Shown piece by piece: positions 1-39,641 of a stretch of DNA of 39,641 nucleotides. The stretch comes from Gammaproteobacteria bacterium (lineage in GTDB: Bacteria > Pseudomonadota > Gammaproteobacteria > SZUA-229): positions 1 to 39,641 of the forward strand of contig JAOUNI010000022.1 in the NCBI GenBank assembly GCA_029881035.1, given 5' to 3'. Each line of letters begins with the position of its first letter. Position 1 is the stretch's first letter. The notes below the pieces were generated by a model, which was given only the letters and a program-made list of their open reading frames with translations, searched no databases and had not been told where the DNA came from. The position numbers and the translations under genes are program-made.

Positions 1-154
1 TTCACCGGCAGTGCGTGAGCAGGTTGCGCGGCTGGCGCGTGTTCGGCCTGATGTGGCGGTTGAGGTTGTGGCTGATGATGATGCGCGGCTGACTGATCGT
101 GACAAGCATTTTAATACCGGCGTGACCAGGGCGCTGCTGGCTGCGGCGGCGGTT
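1..154. repeat. Left copy of terminal overlap (circular genome)
   Basis: These 154 bases recur at 39488-39641. The copies differ only at window positions 10, 23, 25 and 28; the other 150 bases agree. Three differences are silent and together positions 23 and 25 change Val to Ile in the primase. The overlap shows that the contig closes on itself as a circle or comes from a circularly permuted molecule. The mismatches suggest that reads from two variants were joined. Confidence 0.9.
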
Positions 155-18467: not shown

Positions 18468-18559
18468 TGTGCCTGTAGAAATATGGCAGGCTGTGCGGGG
18501 CTTCCTTCGGGAAGGCCGATCCTCTGACCGGTAAGACCAACCCCGTGCAGTCTGCCACC
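18468..18559 (+). ncRNA. c4-like antisense RNA
   Basis: A structured leader segment that resembles the c4 antisense RNA of phages P1, P7 and P4. It folds as GCCTG/CAGGC, then GGCAG/CTGCC enclosing TGTGCGGGG/CCCCGTGCA, with an inner CTTCC-TTCG-GGAAG hairpin. Two exposed stretches, CCTCTGA (18521-18527) and AGACCAA (18534-18540), are exact complements of TCAGAGG (18599-18605, covering the Shine-Dalgarno of the next gene) and TTGGTCT (18567-18573). In P1 the c4 RNA uses two such short regions to block translation of a gene on its own transcript. The family match is from memory of its layout. Confidence 0.62.
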
Positions 18560-18566
18560 CTATTGA

Positions 18567-27366: not shown

Positions 27367-28332
27367 TCAATCCAACTTAGCCGCAATCTCTTCCGCGCTC
27401 GGGTTGTAATAAATCATCAAGCTCTTTGGATCTCGGTGGCCGACCATGCGCGCTAGATCGAGAACGTGCAGCTTCTGCGCTAATCGGGTCAACGCTTCGT
27501 GGCGCGAATCGTGAAAGGTCATATCTTTGATGCCGGTCTCAATTCGTGCCTTTCTAAATGTGGATGAAAGCACGCCGCTGCTAATGTCGAGCCGGTGATC
27601 GGGTAGGCGCTGAAACAACTCAACCGCGCGGCTGGTCAAAGGTACGTCGCGCCGGTCACTATTCTTCGTGTCGATCAAAGACACAAAGCGTTTTTCAGGA
27701 AACACCTTGTCGCTGTCCAGGCTAAGCAGTTCACCCGCGCGCATAGCTGTTTCAATCGCAATCAACCAGGCATAAGCCGTCACCTGTTTTTTATTCTCAG
27801 GCGGCTGGCCCTCAACATAACCGAGCTGCTTCAACATGGTCTCGATCTCATCAGGTAGTACACGCCGGAATCGATGCTTCGGCGTCGTTGGTGCTGCTAC
27901 GCCTTTCATTGGGTTAACCTCCAGCCATCCCCATTCCTTGCGCGCGATCTCAAACACAGACCGCAGCAAATTCATTTCACGCTTCACCGTACCTGATGCC
28001 ACCTTCCTCAACGCCGCGTCACGCCATTTAGCGATATCCGACGTCTCTATTTTATTCATGGGCAAAGCAATAAACTGGATCTCTTTCTCAAGTTTATGCA
28101 AACGAATCGCCTCCCAGCGCGCCCCTTTTTTCGTTGGCGATACCTCCTTTGCATATCGTTTTAACGCCGCCAACATCGAATGCGCACCAGTACCAGCATC
28201 AACACCATTCAGCTCCTGCTCAACCGCCCAATCACGACACGCCGTTTTAGTATCAAACGTAGCAGACCGCCGTGCACCATCGATGCAAACCTCAACCCTC
28301 CACTTCTTCCCGCGCTTCCTGTATGCAGCCAT
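27367..28332 (-). CDS. int: Tyrosine integrase
   Basis: A protein of about 321 residues. The N-terminal domain has a basic DNA-binding start (AAYRKRGKKWRVEVCIDGARRSA, the arm-binding type), the core-binding domain covers about 55-150, and the catalytic domain has all expected residues. These are Arg in AMRAGELL (about 198), Lys in TKNSDRRDVPL (about 223), His-x-x-Arg in FHDSRHEALTRL (about 274-277), His in MVGHRD (about 299) and Tyr in MIYYNPS (about 308-309). It inserts the phage at attP, which lies just upstream of the gene. ATG at 28332 is preferred over TTG at 28338. It is convergent with the late operon. Confidence 0.93.
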   Translation of the reverse strand: MAAYRKRGKKWRVEVCIDGARRSATFDTKTACRDWAVEQELNGVDAGTGAHSMLAALKRYAKEVSPTKKGARWEAIRLHKLEKEIQFIALPMNKIETSDIAKWRDAALRKVASGTVKREMNLLRSVFEIARKEWGWLEVNPMKGVAAPTTPKHRFRRVLPDEIETMLKQLGYVEGQPPENKKQVTAYAWLIAIETAMRAGELLSLDSDKVFPEKRFVSLIDTKNSDRRDVPLTSRAVELFQRLPDHRLDISSGVLSSTFRKARIETGIKDMTFHDSRHEALTRLAQKLHVLDLARMVGHRDPKSLMIYYNPSAEEIAAKLD

Positions 28333-28347
28333 AATCAATACCCATGT

Positions 28348-31425: not shown

Positions 31426-32964
31426 TTAGTTGTTGTCGCCGCGATACATCGCTGCCAGGTCTTCGGGTACACCGTAGATGCCAGCTTTTTCGAGTAGCTT
31501 GTTCTGGATTTCTTCAACGGGTAAATTGCGGATCTCGTTTACCCATCCGATGGCACCGAATGAGTCGATGATGGCTGAAGGCGTGGTAGTGACCAGTTCT
31601 TCTTTGTTTTTGAGTTTTAAATAATCTCTGTCGATGGTGTAGAAACCTTCGAGCTGGATATTGCAGTGGTGGGCTAGTCTTCGCAGGTTGTCGCGATCCA
31701 TGCATCTGACGATCTCATAGCAGGCCATGACTTCTAGCTGCGCCGGGTCGATGGCTTGCTTGAGCGTAATATCGATACCCTTGTCTTCGATGTCGTTATC
31801 AAGGTTTAGGTATACGTCTTCGAGCAAGCAATCATAATGACCTGGCGCACCACTGGCCATCCACAAGACAACCTGGCTGCGGGTTGTCTGGCTCAATAAC
31901 AAGCAGGCGTTTATTTGAGGGCGAAGCCATTCATCGAGGTATTCTTGCGTGTTTTCGATTAAGGCCAGTTCTTTTTGGTCAACGGGAGCGCGAAGTACTT
32001 TGTTGGTTTTTTTTAATTCATCAACAGAGACGCCTAACTGTTTTGCTTCGGCAGCAAGCTCCTTTTCTTTTTGTTTTTTGCTGGCAGCGGCCTCGCGTTT
32101 TTTAGCTGCAGCTATTTTTTTCTCTGCGGCTTCCTGTTTTTCGTCGTAACACTCTTCATTGAGGCAGTAGATGCGCTCATAGAAATCATTAATTTTGATA
32201 TGTTTACAGGTTTTGCAGCCCTTGCATTCTGCTCTATCGAAGGCCGTGCGCACGGGCGCGACCTGTCCTTCTTTGGGCTTACCTGGACCGATAACCAGGT
32301 GGTGCTCGTGAAAAGCATTCTCAATTTCTTCGTCCAGCTCACTGATTGAAATTATTTTTTTCTGTTTCTCAAGAAACGCCTGCATGTGCGCCATGACTTT
32401 GTCGCTGGCGAGGGCAGGCAATAAATATTTGCCATGCGCAGCGGTGAGCTTGCCTTGCTGGATCATTAGTTGCGTCCATTCTGGAAGCTGTAACAGGCGA
32501 CGGATGTTGCTGATGTAGCTGCGGTCGAAGGGTTTGAAGCCACACTTGACCAGTTCTGCAGGTAGCTTGGTGGCTTGGACGCCGTGATTGGTGATCATGG
32601 TTTCAAAGAAGATGGCCATTTCAATGGCGTTCAGGTCGCGGCGCTGGAAGTTCTCGCTGACCTGATCGAGCAGGCGCGCCTTTGGGTCAGGGGCGTTGCG
32701 GTACAGGCATGGCACTTCTTTAAGGCCTGCCAGCTGGGCCGCGCGCCAGCGGCGTTCACCGGCCAATATGAACCATTGCTCTTTGCCGTCGGTCTCTTCT
32801 ATAAAGTAGAGAATCGGCTCCATGATGCCGCGCACCTTGATGTCGTCAGCCAGTTCCTGCAAGGCTTCAGGGTCAAAGTATTTGCGGGGCTGGGCTGGAT
32901 CTGGGTTCAGGTCCTTTGGTTTGATGTATTCGATTGCTTCTATTTCTGGTGCTGCTTGTGTCAT
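31426..32964 (-). CDS. ParB/Spo0J-like protein with zinc-binding insert
   Basis: A 512-residue protein. Residues 10-110 form the ParB-like CTPase/nuclease domain (EYIKPKDLNPDPAQPRKYFDPEALQELADDI, AGERRWRAAQLAG, QVSENFQRRDLNAIEMA). An HTH region follows to about 200. Next comes a Cys cluster near 245-275 (CKGCKTCKH, YCLNEECYD) and a long alanine/lysine coiled coil. The large C-terminal domain is unfamiliar. It is the first gene of the leftward operon, behind operators shared with cI. Without a ParA, roles in transcription or replication are as likely as partition. GGGAGA precedes the ATG. Confidence 0.85.
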   Translation of the reverse strand: MTQAAPEIEAIEYIKPKDLNPDPAQPRKYFDPEALQELADDIKVRGIMEPILYFIEETDGKEQWFILAGERRWRAAQLAGLKEVPCLYRNAPDPKARLLDQVSENFQRRDLNAIEMAIFFETMITNHGVQATKLPAELVKCGFKPFDRSYISNIRRLLQLPEWTQLMIQQGKLTAAHGKYLLPALASDKVMAHMQAFLEKQKKIISISELDEEIENAFHEHHLVIGPGKPKEGQVAPVRTAFDRAECKGCKTCKHIKINDFYERIYCLNEECYDEKQEAAEKKIAAAKKREAAASKKQKEKELAAEAKQLGVSVDELKKTNKVLRAPVDQKELALIENTQEYLDEWLRPQINACLLLSQTTRSQVVLWMASGAPGHYDCLLEDVYLNLDNDIEDKGIDITLKQAIDPAQLEVMACYEIVRCMDRDNLRRLAHHCNIQLEGFYTIDRDYLKLKNKEELVTTTPSAIIDSFGAIGWVNEIRNLPVEEIQNKLLEKAGIYGVPEDLAAMYRGDNN

Positions 32965-32993
32965 TTTGGTGTTCTCCCGTGTTGTTTTGTGAG

Positions 32994-33022
32994 AGAGTAC
33001 AACCAAGAGTTGTATTAGTCAA
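32994..33022 (-). promoter_or_regulatory. PL-like promoter of leftward operon
   Basis: On the minus strand TTGACT (33017-33022) and TACTCT (32994-32999) are spaced by 17 bases. The -35 box lies between two repressor operators and one operator fills the spacer, so repressor binding should block the promoter. The -10 is weak. Confidence 0.5.
32998..33014. promoter_or_regulatory. Repressor operator at PL
   Basis: A palindrome TACAAC-CAAGA-GTTGTA with the same half-sites and spacing as the two operators between cI and the cro-like gene (35715-35753). Confidence 0.75.
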
Positions 33023-36534: not shown

Positions 36535-36993
36535 ATGAGTAATAAAAAAGAACAAAGCGTTGATTGTGATGATGTGCATTTTGCGATGCATAGCGCGGTT
36601 AAGAATAATCAATCGGTTAAGTTTTCTGACCTGGCCACGGAGACGGGCCAGAACAAGCAGACGTTTATCAATCGGCTGAATTATAAGGATACAGAGCATC
36701 CGCCCACTGTTGAAGATTTGGAACTGGTTGTGCGTCGCACGGGTGACACTACGCCAATCGAGATTCTTTGCAGTATGTTTGGTGGTCGGTTTACCAGTGC
36801 CAGCAAGGATGTGTCTGAGTCAGTCATGTCGGCGGTGCTGCATGCGGCCAGTGAGCAGGGTGATGTATATGCTGCCATCGAGAAAGCAAAGCCGGGTGGA
36901 TATAGCAGAAAAGAAAAAGTCGAAATCAATCGGCAGATTAGTGAGGCCGTTGCGGCGCTTAATAAATTAAAAAACACAGTGAACCAGGAATAG
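36535..36993 (+). CDS. CII-like regulatory protein (CP76 type)
   Basis: A 152-residue protein with the layout of phage regulatory protein CII of the PF06892 group: DDVHFAMHSAVKNNQSVKFSDLATETGQNKQTFINRLN (about 10-47), HPPTVEDLELVVRRTGDTTPIEILCSMFGG (about 55-84), and a helical C-terminus (SRKEKVEINRQISEAVAALNKLKN). It probably activates lysogeny promoters. AAAAAGGGGAATTAA precedes the ATG. It is the second rightward gene after the cro-like gene, as in lambda. Confidence 0.8.
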   Translation: MSNKKEQSVDCDDVHFAMHSAVKNNQSVKFSDLATETGQNKQTFINRLNYKDTEHPPTVEDLELVVRRTGDTTPIEILCSMFGGRFTSASKDVSESVMSAVLHAASEQGDVYAAIEKAKPGGYSRKEKVEINRQISEAVAALNKLKNTVNQE

Positions 36994-37186: not shown

Positions 37187-37536
37187 TGCCAGCGATGAAT
37201 ATTAGAGATGAGGCAGCGGACAGTGTTGAGCGTGCTGAAATTTTTGCAGCGATTTGTGGCGGTGATTGTTACCGGGTGAATGATGTTCTGTATTTGTATA
37301 AGGGTGTGTTCACAAAGAGCGCCAGGCGAATCAGGAACACGCATTGTGATGAGGTGAAGAGTATCCACATCAACGGTAGCAATAAAGCGGTGATTTTAGA
37401 TAACCGTTTGTTGACGGTTGATGAAAAAGAAAAGCTGGCACTGGATACAGGATTTAAAAACTTCGAGGCGTTGTTGAGTTTTTTTAAAGATAAAAAACGT
37501 CTGCCGCTGGATGGGCAGTTGGTGAGGTGGTTGTGA
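37186..37536 (+). CDS. Hypothetical early protein
   Basis: A 116-residue soluble protein. The N-terminal half has EIFAAICGGDCYRVNDVLYLYKGVF. The C-terminal half has VDEKEKLALDTGFKNFEALLSFFKDKKRLPLDGQLVRW, a pattern (DGF-x5-M-x2-FF ... LPF-G-W) seen in the ends of several small phage proteins. No function is known. The ATG at 37186 is preferred; a GTG one codon earlier also exists. It overlaps the previous stop. Confidence 0.6.
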   Translation: MPAMNIRDEAADSVERAEIFAAICGGDCYRVNDVLYLYKGVFTKSARRIRNTHCDEVKSIHINGSNKAVILDNRLLTVDEKEKLALDTGFKNFEALLSFFKDKKRLPLDGQLVRWL

Positions 37537-37715
37537 AAGCGAAACTATTAATGGTAACCGCGTTAAGTATAGCGGCCAGTGCTGGTGTTTCGTTGCATGT
37601 GCCTGGCTCAAGAAAAATAAAGAAGGCGACGGATGCTGATCGTGATCGGTTGGTGTTGGCTGGTCAAAAGCGCCAAAGAAAAAAAGAGCGTCAGCTTAAG
37701 TTGGCGGGGCGGTGA
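37533..37715 (+). CDS. Small basic protein with N-terminal hydrophobic segment
   Basis: A 60-residue protein. The start (MKAKLLMVTALSIAASAGVSL) looks like a signal or membrane anchor. The rest is very basic (RKIKKATDADRDRLVLAGQKRQRKKERQLK). The GTG overlaps the preceding stop (GTGA). A TM-anchored, nucleic-acid-binding role is possible, but nothing specific is recognised. Confidence 0.55.
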   Translation: MKAKLLMVTALSIAASAGVSLHVPGSRKIKKATDADRDRLVLAGQKRQRKKERQLKLAGR

Positions 37716-37764
37716 CATGGTTAGTGATTTTAGTGATCATGTTTTAAAGGTAGTGGGTGAGTAG

Positions 37765-37863
37765 GTGTTTTTCTTCTACATAATATTAACCGCCATCGCC
37801 ATAGCCGGTGCAATGCTTTGCGTTGAATTTTATTATGCGCTGTTTAAGTTTGATGAAGAATAA
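37765..37863 (+). CDS. Tiny membrane protein, possible first cassette gene
   Basis: A 32-residue protein, MFFFYIILTAIAIAGAML followed by CVEFYYALFKFDEE, with one membrane segment and an acidic tail. The GTG has GGTGAG five bases upstream. Its TAA stop is inside the R'' end of the first attC-like site (TAAC), as is common in integron cassettes. No function is known. Confidence 0.5.
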   Translation: MFFFYIILTAIAIAGAMLCVEFYYALFKFDEE

Positions 37864-37926
37864 CGTTCGAGCTGTGGGGTGAGGCGCGTTTTTTGCGCCG
37901 AGTCCCACATGAGCGAATTGTTAGGT
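37858..37926 (+). other. attC-like site 1
   Basis: The left end TAACGTTCGAGC and the right end GAGCGAATTGTTAGGT are imperfect inverted repeats. The right R' box is GTTAGGT (GTTRRRY consensus). The centre folds as GTGGG/CCCAC, a loop with G-A mismatches, and GGCGC/GCGCC. The reverse complement of the right end (CCTAACAATTCG) is close to the end of known resistance-cassette attC sites. The left 7-mer, GAATAAC, is a poor match to RYYYAAC. Confidence 0.62.
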
Positions 37927-37947
37927 TTTTTTGATGAGAGGTGAAAT

Positions 37948-38187
37948 GTGAAAATAGAGCAGAATATAAATATACACGGCATTATTTGCGTTCTTTCTTT
38001 TGAAGTTTCTCACGAAGATTTACGAGAGCTACTAGGAGGCTCAGAATGCGAGTGTTCATTCGAAGAACTGGAAGATCTTCTCCTTCAATGTGGCGAGAAA
38101 ATTCATTTGATGCTTTCTCAATCAGCGAAATCGTTTCATTTAGATCTGTTGACTTCATATGCTAATGCTCTCCGTGATAAATGTTAA
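37948..38187 (+). CDS. Hypothetical cassette protein (79 aa)
   Basis: A 79-residue protein, MKIEQNINIHGIICVLSFEV, then helices SHEDLRELLGG and CSFEELEDLLLQCGEKIHLML. It is acidic and soluble, with no recognised family, as usual for integron cassettes. GAGAGG lies upstream of the GTG. Codon use is AT-richer than in neighbouring genes (many TCT, CTT, AGA), a sign of separate origin. The stop is seven bases before attC-like site 2. Confidence 0.65.
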   Translation: MKIEQNINIHGIICVLSFEVSHEDLRELLGGSECECSFEELEDLLLQCGEKIHLMLSQSAKSFHLDLLTSYANALRDKC

Positions 38188-38193
38188 TCATGA

Positions 38194-38277
38194 ACCTAAC
38201 GCCTATATGAAGCCGCGCCGCACAGGCGCTAAAAAGAATGCCGACAATACCGCGTCGGCTTGCATTAATTGTTAACT
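38194..38277 (+). other. attC-like site 2
   Basis: R'' is ACCTAAC (38194-38200), an exact RYYYAAC match. R' is GTTAACT (38271-38277), one base off GTTRRRY. The L boxes TATATGA and its partner (reverse complement TAATGC) pair with one extra base, and AAGCCG pairs with CGGCTT. Inside is GCGCC/GGCGC. This arrangement, with an unpaired spacer and extrahelical base, is characteristic of attC. Confidence 0.68.
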
Positions 38278-38293
38278 GACAACGGTGAATACC

Positions 38294-38587
38294 ATGATGG
38301 AAGTAAAAGATTATCTGCTGGCATGTCTTAGCGAAGAAAGCGGGGAGATTGCGCAAGCCGTTGGTAAAGCGCATCGGTTTGGGCTGCTAGACAAAAACCC
38401 AGTATCAGGGCTCACAAATTGGGTTGAGCTGAGGGGAGAGGTTCACGACCTTATCGCCGTCTATGAAATGCTGTGCGATAAGTTTGACCAGGCCGAGGCA
38501 TTAGACCGCAAGTTGATCGAGGTCAAAAAAGAGAGGGTTACGGATTACATGGTCTACTCCCACGGCCTTGGGCGGCTTGCCAGTTAA
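38294..38587 (+). CDS. MazG-like NTP pyrophosphohydrolase (cassette gene)
   Basis: A 97-residue all-helical protein with the MazG-type metal-binding pattern: ExxE at E15-S-G-E18 in LSEESGEIAQAVGKAHRFG, and ExxD at E49-V-H-D52 in ELRGEVHDLIAVYEML. It would hydrolyse nucleoside triphosphates to monophosphates and is about as short as such family members get. MazG-like genes are known both in phages and in integron cassettes (iMazG in Vibrio). Its stop lies in the R'' box of attC-like site 3. ATG 38294 is preferred; GTG 38285 is in frame. Confidence 0.78.
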   Translation: MMEVKDYLLACLSEESGEIAQAVGKAHRFGLLDKNPVSGLTNWVELRGEVHDLIAVYEMLCDKFDQAEALDRKLIEVKKERVTDYMVYSHGLGRLAS

Positions 38588-38643
38588 CACCTCAATATGA
38601 TGCTTAGCGTTTTTTGCTAAGTCTTCATATTGATTTGTTATGC
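38582..38643 (+). other. attC-like site 3
   Basis: TAAC on both ends, a perfect nine-base L box pair (TCAATATGA 38592-38600 with TCATATTGA 38625-38633), a short bulge (TG against TCT) and a CTTAGC/GCTAAG stem with a T-rich loop. R'' is AGTTAAC and R' is GTTATGC. Of the three sites it has the best stem. Confidence 0.72.
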
Positions 38644-38696
38644 AATGGACTGCTGGTTTTAAGAATAAAAAATAATAATAACAGAAGGTTTTTATT

Positions 38697-39641
38697 TTGA
38701 TTCTCGATGATGTTTATAAATTAGCTGATGACCTGGGGCTGGAAGTTGACAAGCTCAAGCTCGATGGTCAGTGGCATCGTGTGCCGGTGATCGGTAAGAA
38801 AAAGAGTAATAAAAGCGGCTCTTTTTGCTTAAGTGAAATCACGTTGAAGTCTGGCGATACGGTGGTGGTTGGTTTGTTGTGTAACTGGTCGTCTGGCCGC
38901 GAAGAACGTTTGACGCTGGATGATGTGGTTGGTGCTACGTCTGATGAAATTGATGAAGCCAGGCGTCGGGCACGCGCGGCGGCTGAGGCTGGTAAAAAAG
39001 AAAAGGAAAAACTGCAGACGGAGACGGCTAAACGTGCTGAAGAAATTTGGAACCGTTTACCTGAGTCGGGCATGTCGCATTACCTGGGAAACAAGAAGGT
39101 GCTGAATTATGACGTGCGGTTTTCCCGTGGCTCGATTGTGGTGCCTGCGCGTGATGTCGATGGCAAGCTGTGGACGTTGCAGTATATCAATGCTGAAGGT
39201 GAGAAGAAGTTTTTAACCGGCGGCGCGAAGCGTGGCCGGTTTCATTTTATAAAATGTCCCGCAGGGACTCATTATTGTTTTGGGGTTGCTGAGGGTTATG
39301 CAACGGCTGCGTCGTTATTCGATGCGATGGCGCAGCGTTTTTCTATTGCGGTGGCATTTGATGCTGGCAATTTATTGCCGGTTGGCGAAGCCTTGCGTTC
39401 GCGGTATCCCGATTCTCGAATTATCTTTTTTGCTGATCACGATATTTATAAAGGCTATCCGCAGGCTTTAATTCGCGCGCGTGATGCTTCACCGGCTGTG
39501 CGTGAGCAGATCGCACGGCTGGCGCGTGTTCGGCCTGATGTGGCGGTTGAGGTTGTGGCTGATGATGATGCGCGGCTGACTGATCGTGACAAGCATTTTA
39601 ATACCGGCGTGACCAGGGCGCTGCTGGCTGCGGCGGCGGTT
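38697..39641 (+). CDS. TOPRIM DNA primase (cut by window end; finishes at 2-202)
   Basis: 315 codons are in the window, and the protein finishes at base 202 after the overlap, giving about 330 residues. A small N-terminal region precedes a long charged helix (EARRRARAAAEAGKKEKEKLQ, about 96-120). The primase part has GSIVVPARDVDGKLWTLQYI and the TOPRIM domain VAEGYATAASLFDA (glutamate of the GxxEG type) followed by AFDAGNL and IIFFADHDIYKG (the acidic pair). This is the kind of primase found beside VapE helicases. The TTG start has AGAAGG eight bases upstream. Confidence 0.85.
   Translation, partial: MILDDVYKLADDLGLEVDKLKLDGQWHRVPVIGKKKSNKSGSFCLSEITLKSGDTVVVGLLCNWSSGREERLTLDDVVGATSDEIDEARRRARAAAEAGKKEKEKLQTETAKRAEEIWNRLPESGMSHYLGNKKVLNYDVRFSRGSIVVPARDVDGKLWTLQYINAEGEKKFLTGGAKRGRFHFIKCPAGTHYCFGVAEGYATAASLFDAMAQRFSIAVAFDAGNLLPVGEALRSRYPDSRIIFFADHDIYKGYPQALIRARDASPAVREQIARLARVRPDVAVEVVADDDARLTDRDKHFNTGVTRALLAAAAV
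39488..39641. repeat. Right copy of terminal overlap
   Basis: The same 154 bases as 1-154 with four mismatches, all within the first 28 bases. It confirms that the ends meet in the primase gene. Confidence 0.9.

What the first reader, a model, noticed from the sequence alone, without database searches (positions are those of the whole stretch)
37721..38643. Integron gene cassettes inside a phage early region
Three short genes are each followed by a hairpin with attC architecture in one orientation. All have TAAC/GTTA ends, L boxes with an extra base, a central stem, and gene stops in or next to the R'' box. The third site has a nine-base L-box pair. One gene is MazG-like, a type known from integron cassettes. 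No IntI is encoded, so a host integron integrase would have placed them. This would make a temperate phage a carrier and possibly a landing pad for integron cassettes, linking two mobile systems. I am not aware of this being widely described. The array sits just before the primase gene, so cassettes would be expressed early without a cassette promoter.
Basis: partly seen in the sequence, partly recalled or inferred. Interest (0 to 1): 0.92.

Follow-up and report, generated by a model that had tools for sequence, protein, structure and literature searches.

The report
Backwards integron cassettes in phages
This phage carries a MazG-like gene, and probably a second small gene, bounded by integron-type sites that face the opposite way from the genes, the reverse of bacterial integrons; most viral contigs holding the two site patterns searched show the same layout, so phages likely keep their own pool of swappable genes that host integrases would move.

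Summary
The three hairpins are attC sites. A model built from the attCs of the integron in the same genome bin (which encodes an intact IntI) ranks exactly these three first in the window (56.7, 25.4, 20.0 bits; next 11.0), all on the minus strand. Phage-borne attC clusters are published (Qi et al. 2023); I found no report of this polarity. In IMG/VR, attC polarity is opposite to neighbouring genes in 33 of 40 loci (first pattern) and 91 of 97 clusters (disjoint second pattern). In bacteria with the same patterns, 20 of 32 sites are same-sense, 2 opposite, 10 unclear. Four cassettes shared by otherwise dissimilar viral contigs end at G|TT on both sides, as expected for integron-integrase exchange. 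Nine of 14 reversed loci tested lie near replication genes. Likely mechanism (inferred): host IntI acts in trans; founder insertion behind TAA stop codons fixes the reversed polarity. No close relative of this phage, hence no empty site, was found.

The parts
37858..37926 (-). attC1 (TAACAA...CGTTA on the minus strand); R' box TAA|C at 37861-37864 on the plus strand
   Evidence: R1 56.7 bits; 57-58 of 69 bases identical to host attCs at C25/C82; 85% BLAST match
38194..38277 (-). attC2; R' box TAA|C at 38197-38200 (plus strand); L'' ATG-C-AAGCC pairs L' GGCTTCAT with one extra base
   Evidence: R1 20.0 bits with filters off; missed with default filters; no better folding than shuffles; sequence
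38582..38643 (-). attC3; R' box TAA|C at 38585-38588 (plus strand); lies ahead of the primase gene
   Evidence: R1 25.4 bits
37765..37863 (+). 32-aa ORF, possibly a small membrane protein; stop codon is the TAA of the attC1 R' box
   Evidence: ORF and in-phase stop; coding score weak
37948..38187 (+). 79-aa ORF of unknown function, probable gene of cassette A; a 58-aa ORF on the other strand (37982-38158) cannot be excluded
   Evidence: no homologue but itself; the 58-aa antisense ORF has the higher codon score
38285..38587 (+). MazG-like NTP pyrophosphohydrolase gene (start more likely at 38294), gene of cassette B; stop codon is the TAA of the attC3 R' box
   Evidence: phrog_4856 1.3e-12, no Pfam hit; 30 homologues besides itself, 43-83% identity
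37864..38199 (+). cassette A as the predicted exchange unit in gene direction: attC1 + 79-aa ORF
   Evidence: R' to R' by sequence; inference
38200..38587 (+). cassette B as the predicted exchange unit in gene direction: attC2 + MazG-like gene
   Evidence: R' to R' by sequence; inference
38697..39641 (+). DNA primase gene (runs off the contig end), next gene behind attC3
   Evidence: phrog_2249 1.9e-53
36535..36993 (+). CII-like regulator (Phage_CP76), upstream on the same strand
   Evidence: PF06892 9.6e-22
27367..28338 (-). phage integrase, not an IntI
   Evidence: phrog_1 4.8e-46, PF00589; not among the five IntI-model hits of the genome

Best explanation
Three attC sites of the type found in the integron of the same genome bin lie between early genes of this phage with polarity opposite to the MazG-like gene (and probably to a 79-aa gene), so that each predicted exchange unit is 5'-attC-gene-TAA, and a host integron integrase acting in trans likely inserts and swaps these units. 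Shown: attC likeness and polarity; the MazG-like gene on the opposite strand; an intact IntI and mostly canonical arrays in the bin; the same reversed layout in most viral contigs with the two searched patterns; four cassettes shared by otherwise dissimilar viral contigs with both ends at G|TT. Inferred: the phage infects the organism of the bin; its IntI does the work; founder events enter just behind a TAA stop codon followed by C (complement of G|TTA), which harms no gene in a compact operon and fixes attC in reverse; later cassettes enter the R' box, again behind a stop codon, and are read from an early phage promoter. Reversed polarity also puts the recombinogenic bottom strand on the coding strand, which may raise exchange during transcription or replication (untested).
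For: Model and scores; IntI and matching attCs in the bin; attC in 42 of 54 family genomes, the bin included. Orientation, family bacteria: 31 canonical, 0 inverted, 10 uncalled of 41 cassettes; upstream flank 41 same, 2 opposite, 16 unclear of 59 sites; 12 of 12 loci same-sense. Viral set 1: 47 inverted, 11 canonical, 27 uncalled of 85 cassettes; upstream flank 87 opposite, 16 same, 31 unclear of 134 sites; 33 opposite, 6 same, 1 tie of 40 loci. Viral set 2: 91 opposite, 3 same, 3 tie of 97 clusters. Bacteria with pattern 1: 17 same, 2 opposite, 6 unclear of 25 sites, 11 of them from one genome; pattern 2: 3 same, 0 opposite, 4 unclear of 7. Deposited annotation: PH101 and MW202573 reversed. 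Exchange: both ends at an R box in L084/L087, L177/L224, L071/L074, L200/L247; two groups of near-identical contigs (99.97-100%) part company exactly at R'. Upstream stop codon in phase with the R' TAA at 46 of 121 and 40 of 90 viral sites, 8 of 54 for R'' in family bacteria.
Against: No relative of this phage with an empty site or other cassettes was found, so no movement is shown for it. The 79-aa ORF is weakly supported and a 58-aa ORF runs the other way: only the MazG cassette is firmly inverted. attC2 was missed with default filters. Of the 32 testable shared-block ends, 13 are not at GTT, and 3 of the 19 that are (L198 rows) are GTT in ordinary sequence; rows overlap, and collapsed by hand 12 of 24 distinct ends are at an R box. 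A cruder count gave 14 of 29 against 25.6% background. In one search, 9 of 14 testable ends are elsewhere, and the diverging side of the five R-box ends is short (88-197 bases on the shorter side), so contig-end errors are not excluded. TJE1 is same-sense, as are 6 of 40 and 3 of 97 viral loci. The longest-ORF method gave a weaker contrast in set 1 (35 inverted, 23 canonical, 19 ambiguous, 8 none). L081, counted as opposite, carries an intI. attC1 is followed by seven T. Host assignment rests on binning and attC likeness.
Confidence: 0.8

Rival explanations
1. Ordinary bacterial cassettes were copied from a host array into the phage, and the plus-strand ORFs are chance or native phage genes; nothing about the polarity is special.
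For: attC1 is 57-58 of 69 bases identical to attCs of the bin; a 58-aa ORF in cassette A has canonical polarity and the higher codon score.
Against: The MazG-like gene is supported by homology and is inverted. Inverted genes are rare in the family's arrays (0 of 31 called by codon model; 2 of 36 called by longest ORF). The reversed layout holds in 91 of 97 viral clusters of set 2.
Confidence: 0.1
2. The hairpins are transcription terminators or conserved linker repeats between phage genes that only resemble attC, and modules are swapped by homologous recombination in them.
For: They sit behind stop codons; attC1 is followed by T7; the terminator scan finds 3 sites in 37500-38900 against 1.4 +/- 1.4 in shuffles, two of them the inner hairpins of attC2 (minus) and attC3 (plus); RecE-like genes lie near L083 and L084 arrays; half of the distinct shared-block ends are not at an R box.
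Against: Strand-specific attC features match real integron arrays. A run of five or more T within 16 bases after the hairpin in gene direction is rare: 1 of 43 and 5 of 118 viral sites. Four shared cassettes have both ends at an R box. The patterns read backwards gave 0 hits in 369 genomes. In Qi et al. five of six tested phage attCs recombined with attI1.
Confidence: 0.06
3. Assembly or binning artefact: host integron sequence wrongly joined to a phage contig.
For: Metagenome contig; its ends overlap by 154 bases at 97% identity only; the IMG/VR record is the same assembly and so no second witness.
Against: The array lies inside the contig with genes on the same strand on both sides, and apart from attC1-like sequence the segment 37600-38760 has no DNA match elsewhere in the bin, so there is no host copy that could have been joined in.
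Confidence: 0.04

Closest known systems
CALINs and attC sites in phage genomes (Qi et al. 2023, PMC9892861; abstract, results section and found passages read; figures and supplements not seen)
   Same: attC clusters without integrase in phage genomes; DNA-modification genes among the cassettes; five of six tested phage attCs recombine with attI1
   Different: No genes inverted relative to attC are reported in the text seen: PH101 and TJE1 are called typical, only divergent attCs in P12002L are noted. By R1 and deposited annotation PH101 and MW202573 come out reversed, TJE1 same-sense
Integron of the genome bin (C82/C25/C72)
   Same: same attC family; intact IntI; cassette-sized genes
   Different: genes mostly run with attC polarity and the array starts next to intI; in the phage the firm gene runs against it, with no intI
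Vibrio anguillarum phage Va_90-11-286_p16 (MK672802)
   Same: temperate phage with an attC array (11 R1 hits)
   Different: a piece of a chromosomal integron with its intI (Qi et al.), most annotated genes in the attC sense
attG sites (Loot et al. 2024; seen only as a reference entry; content recalled)
   Same: cassettes entering non-integron targets at a GTT core
   Different: here the inferred target is the complement of a stop codon followed by C in a phage operon

Membership tests
attC site | R''/R' pair with TAAC / GTTA core | tested here: met
   all three sites, minus strand
attC site | L''/L' pair with an extra base on the L'' side | tested here: met
   clear for site 2 (one base); site 1 one or three bases; site 3 a perfect nine-base pair, then unequal loops
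attC site | covariance-model score | tested here: met
   top three of the window with a model made here from 11 host sites; IntegronFinder's own model was not available
attC site | recombined by an integron integrase | not testable with these tools
   -
CALIN | two or more attC sites close together without intI | tested here: met
   three sites in 786 bases; no match of the host IntI in the window
canonical gene cassette | gene followed by its attC in the same polarity | tested here: not met
complete integron | intI with attI next to the array | tested here: not met
   no intI in the phage; intI on another contig of the bin; attI was not searched for
intrinsic terminator | G+C-rich stem followed directly by a T-run | tested here: inconclusive
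   T7 behind attC1 but not directly behind a G+C-rich stem; scan marks inner hairpins of attC2 (minus) and attC3 (plus), near the shuffle level

The most novel reading that the evidence does not exclude
Phages keep a separate, widespread pool of integron cassettes built the other way round (attC in front of the gene, crossover right behind the stop codon). Phage early genes such as DNA-modification and nucleotide-pool genes are traded one at a time between unrelated phages by the integrases of their hosts, and because of the polarity these cassettes would be silent in host integrons while host cassettes would be antisense in phage operons.
Probability: 0.6. Interest if true: 0.92.

Novelty: new variant of a known kind. 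Interest (0 to 1): 0.82.

Why it matters
It gives a concrete, site-specific route for single-gene mosaicism in phage early regions and links it to host integrons. It separates two cassette pools that share recombination sites but not expression polarity, and it bears on the open question of where cassettes come from: a phage gene ending in TAA|C next to an attC is already a cassette. It is directly testable by polarity surveys and simple recombination assays.

Tried and rejected
Empty-site comparison for this phage: primase, upstream 117-aa gene and MazG queries found no close relative in IMG/VR; the primase has no match in 53 other family genomes and at best about 33% identity among phage records. 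MazG as a known cassette gene: not in 53 other family genomes; 16 viral or archaeal loci with relatives hold no attC by R1; phage and plasmid records give only matches under 60%; the one genome-contig scan gave one archaeal contig. attC1 in phage records: no match; the attC of L083 matches only phage P1 L-II and one Salmonella record, neither fetched. Longest-ORF orientation calls were noisy in GC-rich loci and were replaced by a codon model with re-training. The first boundary count was blunt and was redone; both are reported. A class-wide search for MazG did not complete twice and not asked again. Literature: seven searches (listings with abstract openings seen), a find in Qi et al. ('reverse' and 'antisense' 0 times), passages of PMC11023631 and PMC11389934; none reports reversed phage cassettes. 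Subscription papers, preprints and supplements are not covered.

Full report
What is there. The window is the whole contig G000:C35 of a 2.69-Mb metagenome bin and equals IMG/VR record IMGVR_UViG_3300022204_000009. Its ends overlap by 154 bases at 97% identity, as for a circular phage genome. It encodes terminase subunits, portal, head protease, major head protein, tape measure, endolysin, integrase, a repressor-like protein, CII and primase/helicase, so it is a temperate-type tailed phage. Between a 62-aa ORF and the primase lie a 32-aa ORF, a 79-aa ORF and a MazG-like gene, each followed by a hairpin.

The hairpins are attC. The bin encodes an intact integron integrase at C82 (430 bits against a cut-off of 265) beside an array of attC sites; more lie at C25, C72 and C50. 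Eleven host sites gave model R1, whose consensus structure is the attC architecture: a four-pair R stem and an L stem with one extra base. Over the whole window without filters, R1 ranks the three sites first to third (56.7, 25.4, 20.0 bits), then falls to 11.0. With default filters over five sources it found 12 host sites (11 of them in the model), window sites 1 and 3, 11 sites of a Vibrio phage known to carry an integron, and nothing else; site 2 was missed. It found nothing in 113 kb of 16 loci holding MazG relatives. attC1 is 57-58 of 69 bases identical to attCs of the bin. In the family, 42 of 54 genomes, the bin included, hold attC by this model.

Polarity. All three phage sites score on the minus strand; the best plus-strand score at a site is 4.5 bits. 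The MazG-like gene (phrog_4856; 30 homologues besides itself) is on the plus strand. In the family's bacterial arrays genes run with attC polarity: 31 canonical, 0 inverted, 10 uncalled of 41 cassettes by codon model; 34, 2 and 5 by longest ORF. The 79-aa ORF is an orphan with weak codon support, and a 58-aa ORF on the other strand scores higher, so cassette A is only probably inverted. In gene direction the unit is attC-gene-TAA: the R' crossover falls directly behind the stop codon of the 32-aa ORF and of the MazG-like gene, and 12 bases behind that of the 79-aa ORF.

A general pattern in viral contigs. An exact, strand-specific attC pattern taken from the host consensus found 41 stretches in IMG/VR. 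R1 found 137 matches in them, on one strand only in each locus. Of 85 cassettes, 47 are inverted, 11 canonical, 27 uncalled; the earlier longest-ORF count was 35, 23, and 27 ambiguous or none. Of 134 sites the upstream flank is opposite at 87, same at 16, unclear at 31; downstream 90, 17, 27. By locus, 33 are opposite, 6 same, 1 tie of 40. One same-sense locus, L096, carries an intI and looks like an ordinary integron; L081, counted as opposite, also carries one. A second pattern, disjoint from the first and composed partly from a viral site already seen (L078), found 111 stretches. Leaving out the three set-1 loci, 108 loci form 97 clusters: 91 opposite, 3 same, 3 tie. Bacteria with the same patterns mostly go the other way: pattern 1 in 13 of 369 genomes, upstream 17 same, 2 opposite, 6 unclear of 25 sites, 11 of them from one genome; pattern 2 in 4 of 369 genomes, upstream 3 same, 0 opposite, 4 unclear of 7 sites, downstream 1 same, 1 opposite, 5 unclear. 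The patterns read backwards gave no hit in these genomes. Independent of my gene calls, deposited annotation shows reversed sites in PH101 (three R1 hits, E 0.008-0.023; bases 100,001-131,903 not scanned) and MW202573 (four hits, one weak), and same-sense sites in TJE1 (three hits, two of them weak); P12002L gave no hit.

Signs of movement. Blocks shared by otherwise dissimilar fetched stretches of viral contigs were aligned in attC polarity. Both ends are at an R box in L084/L087 (100% over 332 bases), L177/L224 (99.7%, 291), L071/L074 (94.5%, 651) and L200/L247 (92.3%, 325). Over all rows, 19 of 32 testable ends hold a GTT at the break (10.6% of random 9-mers do), but three of these (L198 rows) are GTT in ordinary sequence and rows overlap; collapsed by hand, 12 of 24 distinct ends are at an R box and 12 are not. 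A cruder count gave 14 of 29 against 25.6%. Near-identical contigs were then compared: L147 against L159 and L252, and L194, L220 and L235 among each other (99.97-100% identical over 2.8-11.7 kb), part company exactly at R', the last three with three different left neighbours; L207 shares 684 bases from the same point with a fourth neighbour. In all, 5 of 14 testable ends were at R', 9 elsewhere (mostly L197/L201/L242). The diverging sides are short (88-197 bases on the shorter side), so errors at contig ends are not excluded.

What they carry and where. In 14 reversed loci one long neighbouring protein each was tested: 9 gave replication or recombination functions, within about 4 kb of the sites: RecE-like exonuclease (L083, L084), DNA polymerase (L086), helicase (L078, L101, L104, L107), primase (L074, same PHROG family as the window's primase; L092). 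L087 gave a tail protein, L090 a terminase; L091, L094 and L097 gave no named function. Of ten proteins encoded between reversed sites, the exchanged L071/L074 cassette is a Mom-like DNA modification protein, one is a DNA methyltransferase, two match phrog_322 of unknown function, six have no match.

How it likely works. Inferred steps: the phage meets an integron-bearing host whose IntI recombines folded attC bottom strands (passages of PMC11023631). The first insertion takes place where TAA is followed by C, the complement of G|TTA, so it leaves the upstream gene whole; this fixes attC in reverse. In line with that, the upstream gene's stop codon is in phase with the TAA of R' at 46 of 121 viral sites and 40 of 90 sites of set 2 with an opposite flank, against 8 of 54 for the R'' box in family bacteria. 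Later units enter the R' box behind each stop codon and are read from an early phage promoter. The bottom strand then lies on the coding strand. In Vibrio cholerae, placing bottom strands on the lagging-strand template raised cassette excision, so strand placement may matter in phages too; this is untested.

Terminators. attC1 is followed by seven T, and a scan of 37500-38900 marks three terminator-like sites against 1.4 +/- 1.4 in shuffles, two of them inner hairpins of attC2 and attC3. A run of five or more T within 16 bases behind the hairpin in gene direction is rare in the viral sets (1 of 43, 5 of 118). The sites may weaken transcription, but this does not explain their attC features.

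What is known. Qi et al. 2023 (PMC9892861; results section read) reported integrons or parts of them in 21 phages and showed that five of six tested phage attCs recombine with attI1. They describe PH101 and TJE1 as having typical layout; the text found does not discuss genes inverted to attC. The searches named in Tried and rejected found no report of it. The window is thus a new member of phage-borne attC clusters, and the reversed class is a new variant.

Limits. No relative of this phage was found, so nothing is shown about movement of these two cassettes. The host is inferred from binning and attC likeness. Viral status of the other contigs rests on IMG/VR and the PHROG hits given. The codon model is home-made; its unclear calls are counted above.

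Noticed in passing
window 18479-18562 (+): C4 antisense RNA (Rfam RF01695, 65.6 bits) in the tail region of the phage, a regulator best known from P1/P4-type phages (recalled).
   Followed up: no
L081 2428-3372 and L096 8674-9618: Two of the IMG/VR contigs with attC encode an IntI about 48-50% identical to the host's; L096 looks like an ordinary integron on a contig called viral.
   Followed up: partly
pattern-2 attC type (TAACNC...), loci L147-L254: This attC type was found in 111 viral stretches but in only 4 of 369 sampled bacterial genomes of the class; it may be enriched in phages.
   Followed up: partly
L071 4218-4820 / L074 7521-8126: A Mom-like DNA modification gene is the shared cassette of two dissimilar viral contigs, in L074 near a primase of the same PHROG family as the window's.
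   Followed up: partly
L194, L220, L235 (and L207); L147, L159, L252: Near-identical viral contigs diverge exactly at an R' box with different left neighbours: natural candidates for watching cassette turnover in one phage lineage.
   Followed up: partly
G000:C25 end and C82:2032-2160: The two integron contigs of the bin share the same attC and the start of the same cassette at C25's end, so they may be neighbours or carry a repeated cassette.
   Followed up: no
window 1-154 and 39488-39641: Contig ends overlap by 154 bases with 4 mismatches near the start, suggesting a circular genome with population variants.
   Followed up: no
window 31426-33006 (-): 526-aa ParB-domain protein in a phage that also has an integrase.
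   Followed up: no
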